Below are positions 11,278-42,378 of a stretch of DNA of 42,378 nt, in pieces; the first letter of the stretch is position 1, and every line of letters starts with the position of its first letter. A program made the translations under genes and the position numbers. A model generated the notes under the pieces. It was not told the DNA's origin and made no database searches. It was given only the letters and a program-made list of their open reading frames with translations. The stretch is from Microcaldota archaeon (GTDB lineage: Archaea; Micrarchaeota; Micrarchaeia; Burarchaeales; Fermentimicrarchaeaceae), in NCBI GenBank assembly GCA_013425335.1, contig JACCLG010000024.1:1-42378 (forward strand), read 5' to 3'.

Positions 11278-12225
11278 ATGATACTAATAACAGGCGGAAC
11301 CGGCTTTATAGGGAGCAACCTCGCAAACTATTTTGTTTCAAGAGGACATGATGTGACTGTTTTTGACAACCTCTCGTCAGGGAGAATTGAGAATATAACC
11401 CCTCATCTCAGCCTAAGAAACTTCAATTTTGTAAAAGGCGATATCCGTGACAAGGAGTTCATCAACTCCTCCATGAAAGGTGTTGAGGAGGTATACCACC
11501 TGGCAGCGGACCCCAGCGTCAAGGACAGTGCAACAAACCCCGAGGGCAGCTTTAGAATAAATGTGGATGGAACGTTTAACGTCCTTGAGGCAGCAAGGAA
11601 AAACGACGTCAAGAAAATCGTCTTCACCTCCAGCTCCACTGTTTACGGAGAAACTAAGGTGCTGCCAACCCCAGAAGACCATCCGGAAATTCCCATAAGC
11701 AACTATGCAGCTTCAAAGGTTGCAGACGAGGTATACATCTCATCATATGCCTACACCTATGGAATAAAGGGGGTAGTTCTAAGGCTTGCGAACATTTTTG
11801 GACCTCCTTCAACCCACGGAGTGATGTATGACTTCTACAAGAAGCTTCAGGCAAACCCCAAAAAGCTTGAAATTCTCGGCGACGGCAAGCAGAGCAAATC
11901 CTACCTATATATTTCTGACTGCATAGATGCAATAGCGCTGGCCTCAAGGAAGCAGAAAAAAGTTTACGACTACTTCAACGTGGGGAGCACAGAGATGACC
12001 ACTGTCAATGAGGTTGCAAAGAGCATGTGCTCCGTGCTCGGCGTACGGCCTAAATTTGTATACACTGGCGGGAAGAGGGGCTGGACCGGCGATGTGGTGA
12101 AGATGCTGCTCAGCTCCAAGAAGATAGAGAAGCTGGGCTGGAAGAAAAAGGTCAGCATGAGGGAAGGGGTAAAGCGTTATATTGAATGGCTTAACAAGGT
12201 GAGCGGGAAATTCCACACGCTTTAG
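11278..12225 (+). CDS. NAD-dependent nucleotide-sugar epimerase (GalE-like SDR)
   Basis: MILITGGTGFIGSNLANYF, FTSSSTVYGETK, YAASK; the last ~11 codons (NKVSGKFHTL*) lie inside a dispersed repeat. Confidence 0.9.
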   Translation: MILITGGTGFIGSNLANYFVSRGHDVTVFDNLSSGRIENITPHLSLRNFNFVKGDIRDKEFINSSMKGVEEVYHLAADPSVKDSATNPEGSFRINVDGTFNVLEAARKNDVKKIVFTSSSTVYGETKVLPTPEDHPEIPISNYAASKVADEVYISSYAYTYGIKGVVLRLANIFGPPSTHGVMYDFYKKLQANPKKLEILGDGKQSKSYLYISDCIDAIALASRKQKKVYDYFNVGSTEMTTVNEVAKSMCSVLGVRPKFVYTGGKRGWTGDVVKMLLSSKKIEKLGWKKKVSMREGVKRYIEWLNKVSGKFHTL

Positions 12226-12243
12226 GGGTGGGAGCATGTCACT
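12191..12243 (+). repeat. 53-bp hairpin repeat, copy 1 (IS200/IS605 right-end-like)
   Basis: ttaacaaggtgagcgggaaattccacacgctttaggggtgggagcatgtcact; same length as copy 2 with four mismatches. Confidence 0.85.
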
Positions 12244-14875
12244 CCTTTATCTTGAATATCCTGACCAAGCCTGATGCATTATTGGCTGGGTAGACCTGCT
12301 CGAATCCGTCAAGCTGGCCGAGTATGAACCCCTGGTAGAAAGTTGAATCATACATCTTGCCCTTTCTGTCATCCCAGCCACTTGTACCATCTGGCCATAC
12401 ATCTTTCGTGTACAGCATGGTATAAATATCATAGTACCTGCCGCTGATATACTGGGTGCCGCTGAAGGACGGGAATCCTTTGTTCCTCCTGCTCATGTTG
12501 CTCTCGTAGACAACATCGGCTATCTTCCTGTTTGCACCCTGCGTATCGAACAGCACGCAGTAAGAGTAATTCGAGCGCGTGTATGCCTTCACATATGGAT
12601 TAGCCGGGTCTGACGGCTGGCAGATGTCATTCACCGATATATCCCGCGGAATGTAGATTGTTTCAAACTGGTGGTCAATCTCACATCCCGATGTGCCGAG
12701 CTGATACATGTTGCCCAGCCTCTTGCCCTCGCTGAATGCGAAATCCATGTTTGTCTCATTGTTGTAAACACATGAGAGGAAGTCCAGAGCACCCCATTTG
12801 CTGATCAGATCCTGGTCAAATAAAACATATTTTGCATTATGCGCTATCATGTACTCCTTCAATGCCTGCGGAGTGTTTGAAACGAACTTATCAGCAACCT
12901 CCAGGTCCATGTCACCGTACAGATGGTCATTCCTTGTGACGCACTTCTTCTGCCCGAAATAGTTTATCCAGTGCCCGTAATCCCACCATGAAATCACTCT
13001 GTCATCTTCAGCAACATTATTCTTTATCCATTCCATGGGGTCTCTCCAGTACTGCGGTATCCTGGAGCAGAACAGGTAGGATGCTATTAATTTGCCATCG
13101 TTTGCAAGAAGATTGCAATCCCTTCCCATCTCTGTCGATGCATTTGCGAGCTGATACTTGGGGTCAAGCGTCCCGCCAACAACATCCACCACAGGCCCTC
13201 CTAAGCGAATGGTGCTGCTGGGGTATACGAAGCACTCGGAGGCAAGCACAATCAGCGCAACTACGAAAACCCCCCAAGCCGCCTCATTCCCAAACTCCTT
13301 CTTAAGGAAGTTCTTCAGCACCTTGTCCAGCTCCCCAAAAAACAGCGTGACTGCAACGGCAACCATGAATGAGACGTGAAGCAGATACTTGCTCTTGCTG
13401 AACCCCACATAGCAGATTGGGAATATCATTATGCCAAACAGAATACCCAGCTTAGACCCGCAGTATATGGAATATGCAATCGCAAGGAAGGCAAGTCCAA
13501 GTATCACATAGAGCACATCTTGGCTGCTGCCCAGAAACCCAATCGCACTTGCAAACTGCTGGGCAGTGGGCGTCTCCTCCGCAACTGTCATCATGAGCGC
13601 GCTGCCGGGACGCGCCACCGCAGCAGCATTCACAACATAACTCCAAACCCTCGGCCCTATTGGAACTGGAAAAGATGGAATGAATGTCACCAGAAGGATA
13701 ACCGCGCCTAGAAGCAGGTATCCTGCCAGGTAGTTTATCCTCTCATCCATGTTCTTAACCCTCTGGTCCATCAGGTAAAGGCCAATGGCAAACCCGAGAG
13801 CTACGGCAAAGCTCATTATATCGCTCGGTATCTCCCATCCTATGTAAACAGAATATAGAACATAGGCGAAAACCGTAAATGCCAGCACTATGGCGCTTGT
13901 TTTAATCAACTCCACGTTAGATTTTTTCTGCAGGTAATTAACCAGCGACTGCAGCCCTATATAACCCGCTGCAACCAGGTATACCAGCACATCCTGCTTT
14001 GACCCAAGCGTGGCAGCCATTGTAGCTATGCCGGCAAGAATCGCAAATCTTTTATCCTTCCTTGAAATTGCCAGCGCATATGCAGCATAGAAGAAAAATG
14101 CAGCAAAAATACCCCAGGGCTGCTGCTCGCTCTCCCCTGCGGCAAATTTTTCAACAATCATTGGTATTACGGCAATCAAAGCTGCACTTAACAGCCCGTA
14201 TTTCCTGCCGTATGCCTCGGAAATCAGTATATAAATCAGGAAGCATAGCAACGCTGCAACAAGAGGCGGGTAGGCTCCGGAAATGGTGGCGAGGATGTAG
14301 TTGTCAAACTGCTGGCTGCCCGTGATATAGCCGTGAATTGTATACCACTGCGCAGTTAGGTATGTTATCAAAGGTTGGTTTCGGTGCTGGTCTGGGTGTG
14401 GGAACCAGGCCAACTCGTCATGCAGAGGAACCGCCCCCTTCGTCAGGACGAACTGCGCTATCTGGTCGTAGTAATACGGATCAAACTCGTAGAATATGGG
14501 GCCGAGGCTCTGTATCCTTACCCAGAACGCAAACAGCATTATCACGAGCAGCAGCACCCAGGCTGCATCCCTTCTGTAATTGAATGACAGGCATATATCC
14601 AGGGCGCCCTCCCTGATGCACAGCAGCAAGCCGACGGCTGTGACAATGACCAGGTTTATAATGGCAAGCTGTGGCGAGTAAAGCACGCCAAATAAAGAGT
14701 ATATGAATAGTAGCAGTGGTGGGAACACCAAGCCGAGTATAAAGCCGAATGCGGCTATCGCCGGAAGAGGCAGCTTGGTCTTCTTAAGCAAAGCCAACGC
14801 TATGAGAAATCCCGGTATGAAGATTGAAAGGAAAACCGGAACAGCAGTCGTCAGGACCTCAATCTCTCCACTCAA
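12239..14875 (-). CDS. aglB: STT3/AglB oligosaccharyltransferase (paralogue 1)
   Basis: 878 aa multi-TM protein; ISWWDYGHWINYFGQ catalytic-domain motif; FYEFDPYYYDQIAQF N-terminal DxD-type region. Confidence 0.92.
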   Translation of the reverse strand: MSGEIEVLTTAVPVFLSIFIPGFLIALALLKKTKLPLPAIAAFGFILGLVFPPLLLFIYSLFGVLYSPQLAIINLVIVTAVGLLLCIREGALDICLSFNYRRDAAWVLLLVIMLFAFWVRIQSLGPIFYEFDPYYYDQIAQFVLTKGAVPLHDELAWFPHPDQHRNQPLITYLTAQWYTIHGYITGSQQFDNYILATISGAYPPLVAALLCFLIYILISEAYGRKYGLLSAALIAVIPMIVEKFAAGESEQQPWGIFAAFFFYAAYALAISRKDKRFAILAGIATMAATLGSKQDVLVYLVAAGYIGLQSLVNYLQKKSNVELIKTSAIVLAFTVFAYVLYSVYIGWEIPSDIMSFAVALGFAIGLYLMDQRVKNMDERINYLAGYLLLGAVILLVTFIPSFPVPIGPRVWSYVVNAAAVARPGSALMMTVAEETPTAQQFASAIGFLGSSQDVLYVILGLAFLAIAYSIYCGSKLGILFGIMIFPICYVGFSKSKYLLHVSFMVAVAVTLFFGELDKVLKNFLKKEFGNEAAWGVFVVALIVLASECFVYPSSTIRLGGPVVDVVGGTLDPKYQLANASTEMGRDCNLLANDGKLIASYLFCSRIPQYWRDPMEWIKNNVAEDDRVISWWDYGHWINYFGQKKCVTRNDHLYGDMDLEVADKFVSNTPQALKEYMIAHNAKYVLFDQDLISKWGALDFLSCVYNNETNMDFAFSEGKRLGNMYQLGTSGCEIDHQFETIYIPRDISVNDICQPSDPANPYVKAYTRSNYSYCVLFDTQGANRKIADVVYESNMSRRNKGFPSFSGTQYISGRYYDIYTMLYTKDVWPDGTSGWDDRKGKMYDSTFYQGFILGQLDGFEQVYPANNASGLVRIFKIKE

Positions 14876-20173: not shown

Positions 20174-21709
20174 TCACTTCCTCCTCAGGAGGTATGCTGC
20201 AACGAATGAAACACAGAGCAGCAGCGCAGAAGCAAATGCCGCATCCCCGTATTGGTTTGCTTTTACAAAGTTTACTATTAGCACAGGGACTGTTTTAAAT
20301 GTTGTTGAGACTGCCATTGTGGCGCCTGTTTCGCTCAGGCTCCTCATAAACGCCATTACGGCACCGGCCAGTATGCTGGGCATTATGAGGGGGAGCGTTA
20401 TTGTTCTGAAAACCACCAGTGGTTTTGCGCCGAGCCCTCTTGCCGCATCCTCTAGGTTCTTGTCTAAATCTCTTATGGAGGCTGCCACAGGCTTAACAAT
20501 ATAGGGGTAGGAGAAGCTTATGTGCACCATCGCCAGGATGAAGAGCTCGTTCAGCTTGAAAATATTCCAGAACATGCCAAGGGAAAGCCCCAGGGCAACA
20601 GTGGGCATCACCATGACTGCATCCGTCAGGAATTCGAAAATCGGCCCCACTCCATACTTATTTCTGCCTATGAGCAGAGCCATCCCAATCCCAAAGATCA
20701 GGTTGACTACCGTGGCTGCAAGGGCTATGAGAAAAGATATGCCGATAGAATTCATTATATCCCCAAATTCTCCAGGCGCATAGGATACGAATTTGAGCAG
20801 ATAGAAGGATGGGATGAGAATTATAGAAATGAGGAACGCAAAGGCCAGTGCATTCTTATCCAGCTTGAGGTTGTTCAGTGACCTTTCAAATGATGGATAA
20901 ACTTTCCCGATTGGGATGCCAAATTTATTTGCGAGATACCTAACCAGCGCCAGGAGGATGGTTGATATTGCTATAAGTATTATGCTGAGGGATACAGCAG
21001 AAGCAATATCTCCGCTGTTCTTGTAAAGTAAAGTTTGGGCAGGTGCAGTTGCTGCGAAGAATTGCCCAGTCCCAACAGCCATCATGGTTGCCCCAGTCTC
21101 GCTGAGGCTCCTGGTGAATGCCAGCAGGGCAGCAATGAGCAAGCCAGACTGGAAAAGCGGTAGCGTGATTGTCCTGAAGGCAGTCAGCGGGGTTGCCCCC
21201 AGCGTCCTGGAAGCCATCTCATAGGTTATGTCAACCTCTTCTATTGCAGCAGAGAGGGTTCTCACAATGTAGGGGTAAGTGAAAGCCACGTGCACTGCGA
21301 GTATCATCCAGAAGCCTTTGCCGAGTAACCCAATGCCATCTCCGCCCCAGAATAAAGCTACTGAAAAGCCCAGCGCAGCTGTAGGCATTATCAAAGGCAT
21401 ATCCACTAGGAAGTTCAGGTATACCTTGAGTTTTGTTTTATACCTTGCAATAACCCAGGCAATAGGGATTCCGAATATTATGTCAAGTATCACCGTCATG
21501 AATGCTATGGAAAATGAGTTGAAGAGGGCATCCTTCATCTCCTGAGTGAGATATATTGACGGGAAGCAAACTGCGCCGGAATTAGGGCAGCCCTTTACCA
21601 CTATGTAAAGAATCGGGGCGAATACAAGCAGCAGGAAGAATAGAATGACAATTGAGTAGAAAGCCAATTCGGGGAGCTTACCTGAGGTAAGCTTCCTTTC
21701 ACCCTCCAT
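20174..21709 (-). CDS. ABC transporter permease with two fused permease domains (FbpB/ThiP-like architecture)
   Basis: Two internally homologous halves, each with an EAA-type loop (RTLGATPLTAFRTITLPL; RGLGAKPLVVFRTITLPL) and RSLSETGATM. Start at the second Met (MEGERK) preferred because of a TATA-like tgttaaata about 26 nt upstream. Confidence 0.87.
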   Translation of the reverse strand: MEGERKLTSGKLPELAFYSIVILFFLLLVFAPILYIVVKGCPNSGAVCFPSIYLTQEMKDALFNSFSIAFMTVILDIIFGIPIAWVIARYKTKLKVYLNFLVDMPLIMPTAALGFSVALFWGGDGIGLLGKGFWMILAVHVAFTYPYIVRTLSAAIEEVDITYEMASRTLGATPLTAFRTITLPLFQSGLLIAALLAFTRSLSETGATMMAVGTGQFFAATAPAQTLLYKNSGDIASAVSLSIILIAISTILLALVRYLANKFGIPIGKVYPSFERSLNNLKLDKNALAFAFLISIILIPSFYLLKFVSYAPGEFGDIMNSIGISFLIALAATVVNLIFGIGMALLIGRNKYGVGPIFEFLTDAVMVMPTVALGLSLGMFWNIFKLNELFILAMVHISFSYPYIVKPVAASIRDLDKNLEDAARGLGAKPLVVFRTITLPLIMPSILAGAVMAFMRSLSETGATMAVSTTFKTVPVLIVNFVKANQYGDAAFASALLLCVSFVAAYLLRRK

Positions 21710-21733
21710 GAATTTTTTTCTCAGCAAAAGTAT

Positions 21734-21786
21734 TTAACAATGTGAGCGGGAAACCCCACACGCTTTAGCGGTGGGAGCATGTCACT
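21734..21786 (+). repeat. 53-bp hairpin repeat, copy 2 (IS200/IS605 right-end-like)
   Basis: ttaacaatgtgagcgggaaaccccacacgctttagcggtgggagcatgtcact; best-preserved hairpin CCCAC-a-CGC-TTTA-GCG-GTGGG. Confidence 0.87.
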
Positions 21787-21807
21787 AGAGTATCGACCTC
21801 AACAGCA

Positions 21808-21836
21808 TATTTTAAATCATTCTCCGAAATACTACC
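21808..21836 (+). promoter_or_regulatory. TATA-like element for a leaderless cca transcript
   Basis: atattttaaat about 26 nt upstream of the ATG at 21837, typical archaeal leaderless spacing. Confidence 0.45.
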
Positions 21837-23204
21837 ATGGACAAGCTTCTGAGCGAGGTTCTTGAGAGGATAAAGCCCTCTCCAGAGGAGAAGGAATGGG
21901 AGCTGAGCATTGCGGAGTCTGTGAAATCAAAGCTGAGGAAAATCATCCCAAGGAATGTGGAGCTGGAGATAGTAGGCTCTGTGGCAAAGAATACAGACCT
22001 AAGGAATGACAGGGATGTAGACCTCTTCATGCTGTTCCCCAAGGATACCAGCAAAAAGGAGCTTGTGAGCAAGGGACTCCGCTACGCAAAAAGAGCAGTT
22101 TCACCCAACCCCTGGCGGATAGGCTATGCTGAACATCCTTACCTCAAGGCTGAAATTGAGGGCTGCACTGTGGAGATAGTCCCCTCATTCAAGATACTGA
22201 ATATAAACGAGAGAGCCTCGGCAGTGGACCGCTCCCCGCTTCACAAGAGGTATATACTCTCAAGGTTTGACGAGCGCAAATGCGATGAAGTGAGGCTGCT
22301 CAAGAAATTTCTCAAGAGGTTTGGAGTATACGGAGCTGAGCTGAAGGTTGAGGGATTCTCAGGATACCTCTGCGAGCTTCTCATTGTATGCTACGGCTCA
22401 TTCACAGAGCTGCTCAAGAATGCATCAAATTGGAGGAGCCCTGCAATTGACATAGAGAGATACCACACAGAGAAGGGGATGAGGGAAAAATTCAAAGCGC
22501 CTCTCATTGTGATAGACCCTGTTGACAGGAACAGGAACGTGGCTGCTGCAGTTTCCGCCATATCGCTCTCAAAGTTCATACTTGCCTCAAGGGCATTCCT
22601 AAGAAGACCGAGCAAGGGCTTCTTCTTTGCAGATGAGACGGAATTCTCCAGAAAGGAGCTTGCCAAGAAAATGAGGGGCAGGGGAACCAAGTTTGTTGCA
22701 GTTGTATTCCCAACCCCCAAGGTTGTGCCGGATATACTCTGGCCGCAGCTCAAGAAGGCAGCTGTCAGCATTGTGAGGCATCTTGAGCTTGCAGAGTTCA
22801 AGCTCTTCGGCTATGACTACTGGAGCGATGAGGATAAGAGGTGCGTCATACTGCTGGAGCTTTCCACCCATACGCTTCCCGCAGTGAGGAAGGCAGTTGG
22901 CCCTGCAATCATATACGAAAAGGATGTTGGCAGCTTCATAAGGAAGCATAAAAATGCAATTGGAGGGCCTCATGTTGAGGGCGACAAGGTTGTTGCAGTG
23001 GAACAGAGAAAGGTAACTGACGCCCTGGAGCTTGTCAAGAAAATGACAAAAAAACCGGCAAGTTACGCCATACCTTCCCACATATCCAAGTCAATGAAAA
23101 GAGCATACCTGCTTGTTGATGAGGATATTCTGAATGAGAATTTTGATGAGTTCCTGAATTCCTATCTGTCCACAAAGGAGTTCTTCATTGACAACCTCAT
23201 CTGA
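21837..23204 (+). CDS. cca: archaeal-type CCA tRNA nucleotidyltransferase
   Basis: LEIVGSVAKNTDLRNDRDVDLFMLFP nucleotidyltransferase motif; GPAIIYEKDVGSFIRKHKNAIGGPHVEGDKVV. Confidence 0.93.
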   Translation: MDKLLSEVLERIKPSPEEKEWELSIAESVKSKLRKIIPRNVELEIVGSVAKNTDLRNDRDVDLFMLFPKDTSKKELVSKGLRYAKRAVSPNPWRIGYAEHPYLKAEIEGCTVEIVPSFKILNINERASAVDRSPLHKRYILSRFDERKCDEVRLLKKFLKRFGVYGAELKVEGFSGYLCELLIVCYGSFTELLKNASNWRSPAIDIERYHTEKGMREKFKAPLIVIDPVDRNRNVAAAVSAISLSKFILASRAFLRRPSKGFFFADETEFSRKELAKKMRGRGTKFVAVVFPTPKVVPDILWPQLKKAAVSIVRHLELAEFKLFGYDYWSDEDKRCVILLELSTHTLPAVRKAVGPAIIYEKDVGSFIRKHKNAIGGPHVEGDKVVAVEQRKVTDALELVKKMTKKPASYAIPSHISKSMKRAYLLVDEDILNENFDEFLNSYLSTKEFFIDNLI

Positions 23205-40060: not shown

Positions 40061-42058
40061 ATGCCTACTCGGTGTGAGATGAACAAGGAACTATTTATTG
40101 CAATCTTCCTCATACTTGTCATACTCATATTCACAACACCCACTGTCCCCTACCTGAGTGGTCTCGATAACTGGTACCAGTACAGAATTGCAGAATACGC
40201 GTTTGAACAGGGTGTCAGACCCAACTTTGATCCCCTTTCCAACATGGGTGAGAATATAGTCTATCCGCCCCTGCTGCACTACCTCCTAGCCATACCTGCC
40301 CACATTCCTGGCTTGAGCGTGATGATGATGGCGCAAATCTACCCTCCCCTGGCAGCTATTCTCACTCTCATATTCGTATTCCTTTTTGTAAGGGAAGTTT
40401 TTGATGAGAAGACTGCAATGCTCGCAGCCCTTATTCTATCCTTGCTACCCATCTTCAAACTCATTACCTCATTCGGCTACTCAGACCATGATGCACTGGA
40501 TTTCGTCTTCGTATCCTCAACAATGTTCTTTTTCGTCAGGGCAATAAGCACCAAAGCTCATGCTGCGCCAGAGCAGTTATCCACTGTCGTCAATTCAAAT
40601 GACCTTCTAATTAAGCCTAAAAGACGGTGGGAAAGTTTCATCTACTATGCGCTTGCAGGTGTTTCCTTGGGTCTGTTCTCCCTTGAATGGGGGGGCTTTC
40701 CGATGCTGGTTGTCCCGCTATGCGGTTTCATGCTTCTCTGTGCAATCCTGAACTCTAGGCTGAAACTGCTTGATAACAATATGGTAATGGGTTTCCTGCT
40801 ATTCTCTGCTGTTTCCACTGGAATTGCGTCTCTCTGGTACGGTTCAGACATATTGCCCATATTCGCGGCTGAGCTGATATCCGCAGCATTCTCCTACATT
40901 GCGGTAAGGTTTGAGGGCAATAGCAGAGTGCCGCTTGTCCTGGTTGCAATTATACTCTCCTTCATCCCGATTTTATACTTCTTTGGAGGAGACATCATAA
41001 ATGTAGGTCTTACCTATGTGGGGTTGAGGGATAGGGACGTATACCTGCAGTATGTCGCCGAGCTGCAAACCCCGCATTTCAACGATTTCTCCAACCTTTA
41101 CGGGGTACAGCTGCTCTCCTTCCTAATTGGGCTGGGCTTGTTTGTGATGTCAACAAAGGAGCTGAAGAGGCACACCCTCCTCTTCGCAGCCTGTTTTATA
41201 TTCTTCCTCTTCCTCGCCTCCTCTGCCTTGCGGTTCCTCCAGTATTTCGGCATATTTGTCTCAATTTTCTCAGCCTACCTGCTCGTAAAAATATTCGAAG
41301 TGGTAAACAAGTCGGTGAAAAAGGACGTATTCATACCTTTAATGCTCCTCTCGGCACTGCTTTTTATGCAGCCCCCAGTTCCCACCATTGTAATTTCTGG
41401 AGACTGGTACAATTCGCTCCAATGGCTGAGGAGCAACTCACATTCAACTGATGTCGTGCTCACATGGTGGGATTACTCCCCATGGGTGAATGGCGTTGCC
41501 TGGAGGAAGACGGTCGTGAACAACCAGCCTCCTGGAAGGTTTGACGACGACATGATATTCTTCGGGACAGACGACTGGAGCAAGGCGCAGAACCTGCTTG
41601 AGAAATACAACGTGAGTTATGTGATAGTCAGCGAAGGGATTCTGGATAATATAAAAACCTCGCAAAGCTTCATTAACAAGACTATCAATTTCCAGCAGTC
41701 CAGAGTTTTGAGCCAGGGAAATCTCTACCAGATGGGATTCAGCGGCAGCTTCAGAACATACTTTGACCCCACCTCCAAGCTTGCATGGGATCAGGACTAC
41801 AGCGGGGGCAAGACGTACTACAGGGAGCTAGGCGTGCTGAATGCCGGAACCTCCGAGGAGCAGCACTTCACTGCGAACCTCTCTGGAGCGCAGTTCAATG
41901 ATTATTACCTGTTTATATACTCAGACATTGCAGTAAGGATTCCCAAGGATACAAAGGACAGGGTTTTCTTCAACCTGATGTATACCAACTCAACCATACC
42001 CTACCTGAAGCTTGTGAAGGAAACTGGAGAGGTTAGAATTTATAAAGTAATAAAATGA
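40061..42058 (+). CDS. STT3/AglB oligosaccharyltransferase-like (paralogue 2)
   Basis: 665 aa; LSGLDNWYQYRIAEYAFEQG, FGYSDHDALDF, VLTWWDYSPWVNGVAWRKTVV (variant of WWDYG). Confidence 0.88.
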   Translation: MPTRCEMNKELFIAIFLILVILIFTTPTVPYLSGLDNWYQYRIAEYAFEQGVRPNFDPLSNMGENIVYPPLLHYLLAIPAHIPGLSVMMMAQIYPPLAAILTLIFVFLFVREVFDEKTAMLAALILSLLPIFKLITSFGYSDHDALDFVFVSSTMFFFVRAISTKAHAAPEQLSTVVNSNDLLIKPKRRWESFIYYALAGVSLGLFSLEWGGFPMLVVPLCGFMLLCAILNSRLKLLDNNMVMGFLLFSAVSTGIASLWYGSDILPIFAAELISAAFSYIAVRFEGNSRVPLVLVAIILSFIPILYFFGGDIINVGLTYVGLRDRDVYLQYVAELQTPHFNDFSNLYGVQLLSFLIGLGLFVMSTKELKRHTLLFAACFIFFLFLASSALRFLQYFGIFVSIFSAYLLVKIFEVVNKSVKKDVFIPLMLLSALLFMQPPVPTIVISGDWYNSLQWLRSNSHSTDVVLTWWDYSPWVNGVAWRKTVVNNQPPGRFDDDMIFFGTDDWSKAQNLLEKYNVSYVIVSEGILDNIKTSQSFINKTINFQQSRVLSQGNLYQMGFSGSFRTYFDPTSKLAWDQDYSGGKTYYRELGVLNAGTSEEQHFTANLSGAQFNDYYLFIYSDIAVRIPKDTKDRVFFNLMYTNSTIPYLKLVKETGEVRIYKVIK

Positions 42059-42213: not shown

Positions 42214-42265
42214 AGTGGCATGCTCCCACCCTAAAGCGTGTGGGATTTCCCGCTCACCTTGTTAA
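42214..42265 (-). repeat. 52-bp hairpin repeat, copy 3 (IS200/IS605 right-end-like)
   Basis: Reverse complement ttaacaaggtgagcgggaaatcccacacgctttagggtgggagcatgccact; one-base deletion relative to copies 1 and 2. Confidence 0.85.
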
Positions 42266-42378
42266 AGAAATTATTCACCACGTACCGCAAGTTAGTCTGA
42301 TAACTTTCTTCATGACCTACATATTCAACAAGTTTTGCTCTTTTTTTGATCTGGCTTTTTCTAATTTTGCACTTCTTG
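42231..42378 (-). CDS. partial ORF running off the window; identity unresolved, its 3' end is repeat copy 3
   Basis: Hand translation: ...KKCKIRKSQIKKRAKLVEYVGHEESYQTNLRYVVNNFFNKVSGKSHTL*, open to the window edge; absent from the ORF track (under 60 aa). Confidence 0.5.
   Translation of the reverse strand, partial: KKCKIRKSQIKKRAKLVEYVGHEESYQTNLRYVVNNFFNKVSGKSHTL

What the first reader, a model, noticed from the sequence alone, without database searches (positions are those of the whole stretch)
12191..12243. Repeat copy 1 supplies the stop codons of two convergent genes
The epimerase TAG (12223-12225) and the AglB TGA (12239-12241, minus strand) both fall inside the same 53-bp repeat. The epimerase tail NKVSGKFHTL is read from the repeat and has the same peptide frame as copies 2 and 3. 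This suggests the element landed between, or replaced, the two gene termini, capping the epimerase with a transposon-derived C terminus and leaving a hairpin where the transcripts converge.
Basis: partly seen in the sequence, partly recalled or inferred. Interest (0 to 1): 0.62.

Follow-up and report, generated by a model that had tools for sequence, protein, structure and literature searches.

The report
Mini-transposon capping two convergent genes
A 48-bp remnant of a TnpB-type (IS200/IS605) transposon inserted where two archaeal genes meet tail to tail, giving one gene a new protein tail and the other a new stop codon in the same place; sister copies sit at stop codons far more often than expected, which suggests an insertion mode that spares genes.

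Summary
The epimerase TAG (12223-12225) and the AglB TGA (12239-12241, minus strand) both lie in one dispersed repeat. The element proper is 48 bp (12195-12242) inserted after a TTAA target (12191-12194). It is a core-deleted "terminal-only" derivative of TnpB (IS200/IS605, IS1341-type) elements in the same Micrarchaeota genome: left half from the left end, right half from the right end, joined in the hairpin both ends share. Four congeners have the same convergent pair without the repeat; their epimerases end EWLKTAE*, EWLRITP* or EWLEATQ*, so VSGKFHTL is element-derived. AglB keeps KIKE* in its place; only the stop codon was swapped. In copy 1 the hairpin is eroded, and a terminator role is unsupported. 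The copy is not exceptional: with insertions removed in silico, 11 of 28 non-genic short copies sit exactly at a stop codon, against 27 of 359 comparable TTAR sites (p about 1e-5). Forward insertions keep the T-TAA/T-TAG stop within the target; reverse ones lose TAA but regain TGA in register from the right end (GTCAC). The kind is known (52-bp terminal-only PATEs of Haloquadratum; IS605 stem-loops at Borrelia gene ends). I found no earlier description of the stop-codon register.

The parts
12191..12194 (+). TTAA target sequence (host DNA; retained left of the element). On the minus strand it would have supplied AglB's original TAA stop codon
   Evidence: TTA[A/G] precedes nearly all copies; boundary rule from orthologous or paralogous empty sites and in-silico empty site
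12195..12242 (+). 48-bp terminal-only TnpB/IS605-type element (copy 1): LE-derived left part, shared palindrome, RE-derived right part ending GTCAC
   Evidence: LE of full-length elements, RE of TnpB elements, covariance model E=2.8e-12
12211..12232 (+). sub-terminal imperfect palindrome (hairpin with bulged A); eroded in copy 1 (inner pair G-G, outer pair T-G)
   Evidence: pair counts over 27 copies, DNA folds
11278..12225 (+). NAD-dependent epimerase/dehydratase; last residues NKVSGKFHTL and stop TAG come from the element (AAC codon is a hybrid of target and element)
   Evidence: ORF, Pfam PF01370, orthologues lacking the tail
12239..14875 (-). AglB-like oligosaccharyltransferase; stop TGA (12239-12241) and third base of last codon GAG come from the element's RE; protein end otherwise unchanged
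   Evidence: ORF, orthologues ending KIKE*/KIIE*; AglB core matches are just below the Pfam cut-off
21734..21785 (+). copy 2: TTAA target + 48-bp element, intergenic, about 50 bp upstream of the gene at 21837
   Evidence: G003 has a shorter interval with no element here and G005/G006 carry unrelated sequence
42215..42265 (-). copy 3: TTAA target + 47-bp element, capping an ORF cut by the contig end (...NNFFNKVSGKSHTL*); the same insertion is present in congener G004

Best explanation
The repeat is a core-deleted, non-autonomous 'terminal-only' derivative of the TnpB-bearing (IS200/IS605, IS1341-type) transposons of this Micrarchaeota genome. It inserted once, in this species' lineage, directly 3' of a TTAA at the tail-to-tail junction of the epimerase and aglB genes. 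The two genes ended within a few bases of each other or overlapped, as in relatives. On the minus strand the TTAA was probably AglB's own stop (GAT TAA). The insertion moved it away, but the element's right end (GTCAC, read on the minus strand as G-TGA-C) put a TGA in the same register, so AglB kept its length. On the plus strand the epimerase's last residues (reconstructed NPLS*) were displaced, and reading continues into the element to the TAG in the hairpin loop, giving NKVSGKFHTL*. More generally the family inserts 3' of TTA(A/G), which contains a stop codon in either reading direction. Its right end carries TGA in the register of the displaced TAA, so insertion exactly at a stop codon leaves the gene's end intact in both orientations. 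Such insertions are accepted and over-represented. Shown: identity, boundaries, empty sites, orthologue tails, enrichment. Inferred: the transposition chemistry, the unknown transposase, and selective survival as the reason for the enrichment.
For: Element identity: LE of full-length elements matches the left part. RE at TnpB 3' ends matches the right part, with TnpB's own stop in the same loop, EAHTL*. Five intact TnpB genes in the genome; Pfam OrfB_IS605 and Cas12f1-like_TNB. Empty sites: four congeners have the same convergent pair without the repeat. Removing the element gives EWLNPLS* (309 aa, the congeners' length) and AglB KIKD*. Family behaviour: orthologues of other hit genes stop at the same codon (ILVA*, KGML*, RIKG*, VAKG*, VLS*, FRI*). 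Stop-codon enrichment is 11 of 28 against 27 of 359, p = 1.3e-5; two further short copies also sit at stops. Structure: hairpin with covarying pair (G-C, C-G, T-A; shuffle p = 0.0002).
Against: No Y1 (TnpA) transposase in any of 8 family genomes and no serine resolvase in this genome, so the mobilising enzyme is unidentified. The target could be TTAC rather than TTAR at some sites (paralogue L267 reads TTTAC). No same-species strain with an empty site was available. The enrichment test uses a home-made gene caller and only non-genic sites as background.
Confidence: 0.88

Rival explanations
1. In-situ decay: a full-length TnpB element inserted at this junction and later lost its core by recombination between its two end palindromes, instead of a ready-made 48-bp element jumping.
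For: LE and RE share a palindrome of about 22 bp. Full-length and part-deleted versions (about 180-620 bp) coexist. Short copies fall into several LE subfamilies that match different long elements. Core deletion to 52 bp is documented in Haloquadratum (PMC3119063).
Against: Groups of near-identical short copies exist, as mobility of the short form would give. Long elements look less enriched at stop codons than short ones (2 of 17 against about 14 of 33, p = 0.05), although survivorship could explain that.
Confidence: 0.45
2. A REP-like or regulatory hairpin kept because it ends or protects the two converging transcripts.
For: It sits between convergent genes; a weak consensus terminator match at 12224-12246; hairpin covariation across the family.
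Against: Copy 1's own hairpin is eroded. Copies also lie upstream of genes, in tandem contexts and inside gene ends. Covariation is equally expected for a transposase-bound or guide-RNA hairpin. Congeners lack the repeat at this junction.
Confidence: 0.08
3. A standalone guide RNA (omega-RNA-like) unit: the RE hairpin plus adjacent sequence serves the genome's TnpB nucleases in trans.
For: The RE hairpin and right boundary are those of TnpB elements; five TnpB genes are intact.
Against: The 48-bp form lacks the tnpB 3' region upstream of the RE that characterised omega-RNAs include (established knowledge); copy 1's hairpin is eroded.
Confidence: 0.05
4. Enrichment at stop codons comes only from purifying selection against intergenic insertions that hit promoters (TATA boxes are TTAA-rich), with no role for the TGA-bearing right end.
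For: Coding density is about 90%, so gene 3' ends are among the few safe sites.
Against: In the clear reverse-gene cases the reading frame is the one in which the RE supplies TGA at once (7, against 1-2 in another frame), and orthologues end at the same codon.
Confidence: 0.4

Closest known systems
Terminal-only PATEs (palindrome-associated transposable elements) of Haloquadratum walsbyi, HqIRS46 and ISHwa23 core deletions (PMC3119063)
   Same: 52-bp elements made of the fused ends of IS605-type transposons after deletion between near-identical sub-terminal palindromes; a short target oligonucleotide kept at the left; no target duplication; numerous copies; active Y1 transposase largely missing
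   Different: A Micrarchaeota genus; sequence homology to the haloarchaeal elements not tested; target TTA(A/G); bias to stop codons, which I did not find reported for PATEs in the passages read
Free-standing IS605 stem-loops at the 3' ends of Borrelia lipoprotein genes (PMC2775950)
   Same: Solo IS605 end sequence at gene 3' ends, in one case overlapping the last 8 nt of the coding region
   Different: Only one end (left or right) present, not an LE+RE fusion; few gene families; no stop-register argument
IS608 (IS200/IS605 family, Helicobacter pylori; PMC5934647)
   Same: Inserts 3' of a short target (TTAC) that stays at the left; sub-terminal hairpins; right cleavage site (TCAA) resembles the left one, as GTCAC resembles TTAAC here
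   Different: Autonomous, with TnpA; different target and hairpin sequence
REP/REPIN elements with RAYT transposases
   Same: Short dispersed hairpins related to IS200-type transposition
   Different: No GTAG-type head and no Y1/RAYT gene found in the family

Membership tests
IS200/IS605 (IS1341-type) derived element | Ends identical to those of tnpB-bearing elements in the same genome | tested here: met
   LE match, RE match, TnpB family hits
IS200/IS605 (IS1341-type) derived element | Sub-terminal imperfect palindrome under pairing constraint | tested here: met
   8-pair stem with bulged A; pair 20-27 covaries, p = 0.0002
IS200/IS605 (IS1341-type) derived element | Insertion 3' of a short fixed target without target duplication | tested here: met
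   TTA(A/G) at nearly all left junctions; G006/G005 empty and filled site and paralogue L267 fit with no duplication, though the target base TTAR versus TTAC is not fully settled
IS200/IS605 autonomous element | HUH Y1 transposase (TnpA) available | tested here: not met
   None in 8 family genomes; present in class relatives G028 and G054 in elements with similar but not identical ends. So an autonomous IS605 is not filed; IS1341-type elements lack TnpA by definition
Terminal-only PATE | Fusion of LE and RE at the shared palindrome, no coding sequence, about 50 bp | tested here: met
   48 bp; LE left part, RE right part
Terminal-only PATE | Mobility or repeat-mediated core deletion seen between strains | tested here: inconclusive
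   Copy 1 absent in four congeners; no same-species strains held
Terminal-only PATE | Sequence homology to haloarchaeal PATEs | not tested
   Only viral contigs (pattern) and plasmids (blastn) were searched, with no match
REP/RAYT | GTAG-type head and RAYT (Y1) transposase in the genome | tested here: not met
   No such head in copies; no Y1

The most novel reading that the evidence does not exclude
Single-strand IS605-type transposons with TTA-type targets have a built-in stop-codon exchange. The target contains a stop codon (T-TAA/T-TAG forward, TAA reverse) and the right cleavage site, which must resemble the target, carries TGA in the same register. Insertion at a stop codon therefore preserves the host protein in either orientation. 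This would help explain why compact genomes collect these elements at gene ends, and would make them a steady source of new C-terminal tails when the register is missed. The published IS608 sites (TTAC/TCAA) would share the property.
Probability: 0.45. Interest if true: 0.62.

Novelty: new member of a known kind. Interest (0 to 1): 0.45.

Why it matters
It gives a well-supported case of a transposon remnant rewriting a protein C-terminus and a stop codon in a DPANN archaeon. It extends terminal-only PATE-type elements to Micrarchaeota. It also shows, with orthologues and a background test, that this family lies at stop codons about eight times more often (odds ratio) than comparable target sites. 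The proposed reason, target and right-end sequences that exchange stop codons in register, is simple and directly testable in IS608 or ISDra2. The apparent absence of any Y1 transposase in the whole family, despite lineage-specific insertions, repeats the puzzle noted in Haloquadratum.

Tried and rejected
A Y1 transposase was sought in the genome, the family and element-bearing class relatives; it was found only in G028 and G054, whose Y1 elements have similar but not identical ends. Serine resolvase: none in this genome. Viral and plasmid carriers of the element: no match. A repeated flank around copy 3 as a source of an empty site: the flank is shared only with G004, at the orthologous place and with the element. 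Copy 2's exact empty site: congener intergenic sequence too diverged. Terminator role for copy 1: weak match only, eroded hairpin. Boundary models with the target as TTAC or TTAAC were considered. TTAR is preferred because forward hits keep a native stop at the orthologous codon, but one paralogue reads TTTAC. G043 (another family) long elements showed no clear stop bias in 7 cases.

Full report
What is there. The epimerase ORF ends at 12225 and the AglB-like ORF on the other strand ends at 12239; both stops lie in the repeat 12191-12243. The epimerase matches PF01370 strongly; the AglB-like protein matches the AglB and STT3 core models just below their cut-offs. The genome is a 1.0-Mb, 55-contig assembly; its congener G003 has the same chromosome length (1,178,830) as CP058998, Candidatus Fermentimicrarchaeum limneticum.

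What the repeat is. A pattern search of the genome found 11 copies of two kinds: short ones ending GGTGGGAGCATGTCAC, and others that continue GGTGGGATGAGAGCG... into TnpB elements. The genome has five intact tnpB genes, whose 3' ends run into sequences such as GGAAGCCCACACTCTTTAGGGGTGGGAGCATGTCAC; the tnpB stop there is the TAG in the palindrome's loop. The short repeat is therefore LE fused to RE through the palindrome both ends share. Partly deleted elements of about 180-620 bp also occur. A covariance model finds 26 ends or short copies in this genome and 18, 26, 15 and 2 in its four congeners. The stem has 8 pairs and a bulged A; the variable inner pair is G-C, C-G or T-A and covaries (p = 0.0002), while copy 1 has G-G there.

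Empty sites at this locus. All four congeners have the same convergent pair without the repeat. Their epimerases end EWLKTAE*, EWLRITP*, EWLEATQ* and EWLEATQ*; AglB ends KIKE* or KIIE*. In G003, G005 and G006 the two genes overlap tail to tail. Removing 12195-12242 from the window gives EWLNPLS* (309 residues, as in congeners) and AglB ...KIKD* with a TAA stop. The insertion thus lengthened the epimerase by six residues, replaced its last residues, moved the two stops apart, and exchanged AglB's stop codon in place.

Boundaries. G006 (empty) CTGGAACAATTCTAACCTTTT against G005 (filled) CTGGAATAATTTAA[C...GTCAC]CCTTTT, and paralogue L267 GCTTTACGGAAAG against L162 GCTTTAG[C...GTCAC]GGAAAG, fix the element at about 48 bp after TTAR with no target duplication. 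Whether the last target base is R or C is not fully settled. Forward hits favour R, because TAA or TAG then coincides with the orthologues' stop codon.

The family pattern. Of 32 short copies examined, about half end a flanking long ORF. (a) Forward genes running into the element stop at the loop TAG and gain tails such as VSGKFHTL, VSEKPHTL, VSGNSHTL, SEKPHIL. (b) Forward genes whose T-TAA or T-TAG stop is the target itself keep their end (VAKG*, VLS*, FRI*). (c) Reverse genes stop at the TGA of the RE terminus (ILVA*, KGML*, RIKG*, KIKE*). Orthologues without an element stop at the same codon in (b) and (c). With the insertions removed in silico and one gene caller applied to both sets, 11 of 28 non-genic short copies are at a stop codon against 27 of 359 TTAR sites (odds ratio 8, p = 1.3e-5). 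Two further copies also fit. In two cases the 3' ends of the same gene carry elements in opposite orientation in two species.

Why stop codons. TTAA and TTAG contain a stop forward (T-TAA, T-TAG), and TAA in reverse. In reverse insertions the TAA is displaced, but GTCAC read backwards is G-TGA-C, in the same register. IS605-family right cleavage sites resemble the target (IS608: TTAC and TCAA, PMC5934647), so the property may be general; that is inference. Survival of harmless insertions in a genome with about 90% coding density is the simplest cause of the bias; active targeting is not shown.

Comparison. Haloquadratum terminal-only PATEs are 52-bp fusions of IS605-type ends made by deletion between near-identical palindromes (PMC3119063), and Borrelia has solo IS605 stem-loops at gene 3' ends, one overlapping 8 coding nucleotides (PMC2775950). 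The element is a new member of that kind. No Y1 transposase was found in the family, so the mobilising enzyme is unknown. Literature searches for insertion at stop codons found no earlier account, but most subscription papers are not in that library.

Noticed in passing
42215-42378 and L130: Copy 3 and its flank are shared with congener G004 at the orthologous place next to a second AglB-like gene (40061-42058); the first 121 bases are identical in both, against about 82% for the 880-bp flank, and both contigs end there, which suggests a repeated element at the break.
   Followed up: partly
L007, L193 (GT gene 3' end); L196, L015: The 3' ends of the same two genes carry IS605-type elements in opposite orientations in two species (short against short; short against full-length), apparently independent insertions.
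   Followed up: partly
G043 (L277-L283): A class relative in another family has closely similar TnpB-type elements of 627-1400 bp, two of them deleted to 627 bp, without a Y1 transposase.
   Followed up: partly
L162 (G000:C51) and L267 (G000:C33): Two similar ABC-transporter ATPase-like genes in one genome, one with and one without the element, give a within-genome empty site.
   Followed up: yes
whole genus (G000, G003-G006): The 4th base of the TTANC left flank correlates with the LE subfamily (TTAGC with AGAAGCGAGC, TTAAC with AAGGTGAGC), as expected if LE guide sequences pair with the target.
   Followed up: no
21640-21960: Copy 2 sits about 50 bp upstream of the gene at 21837, near its likely promoter; congeners have no element there.
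   Followed up: partly
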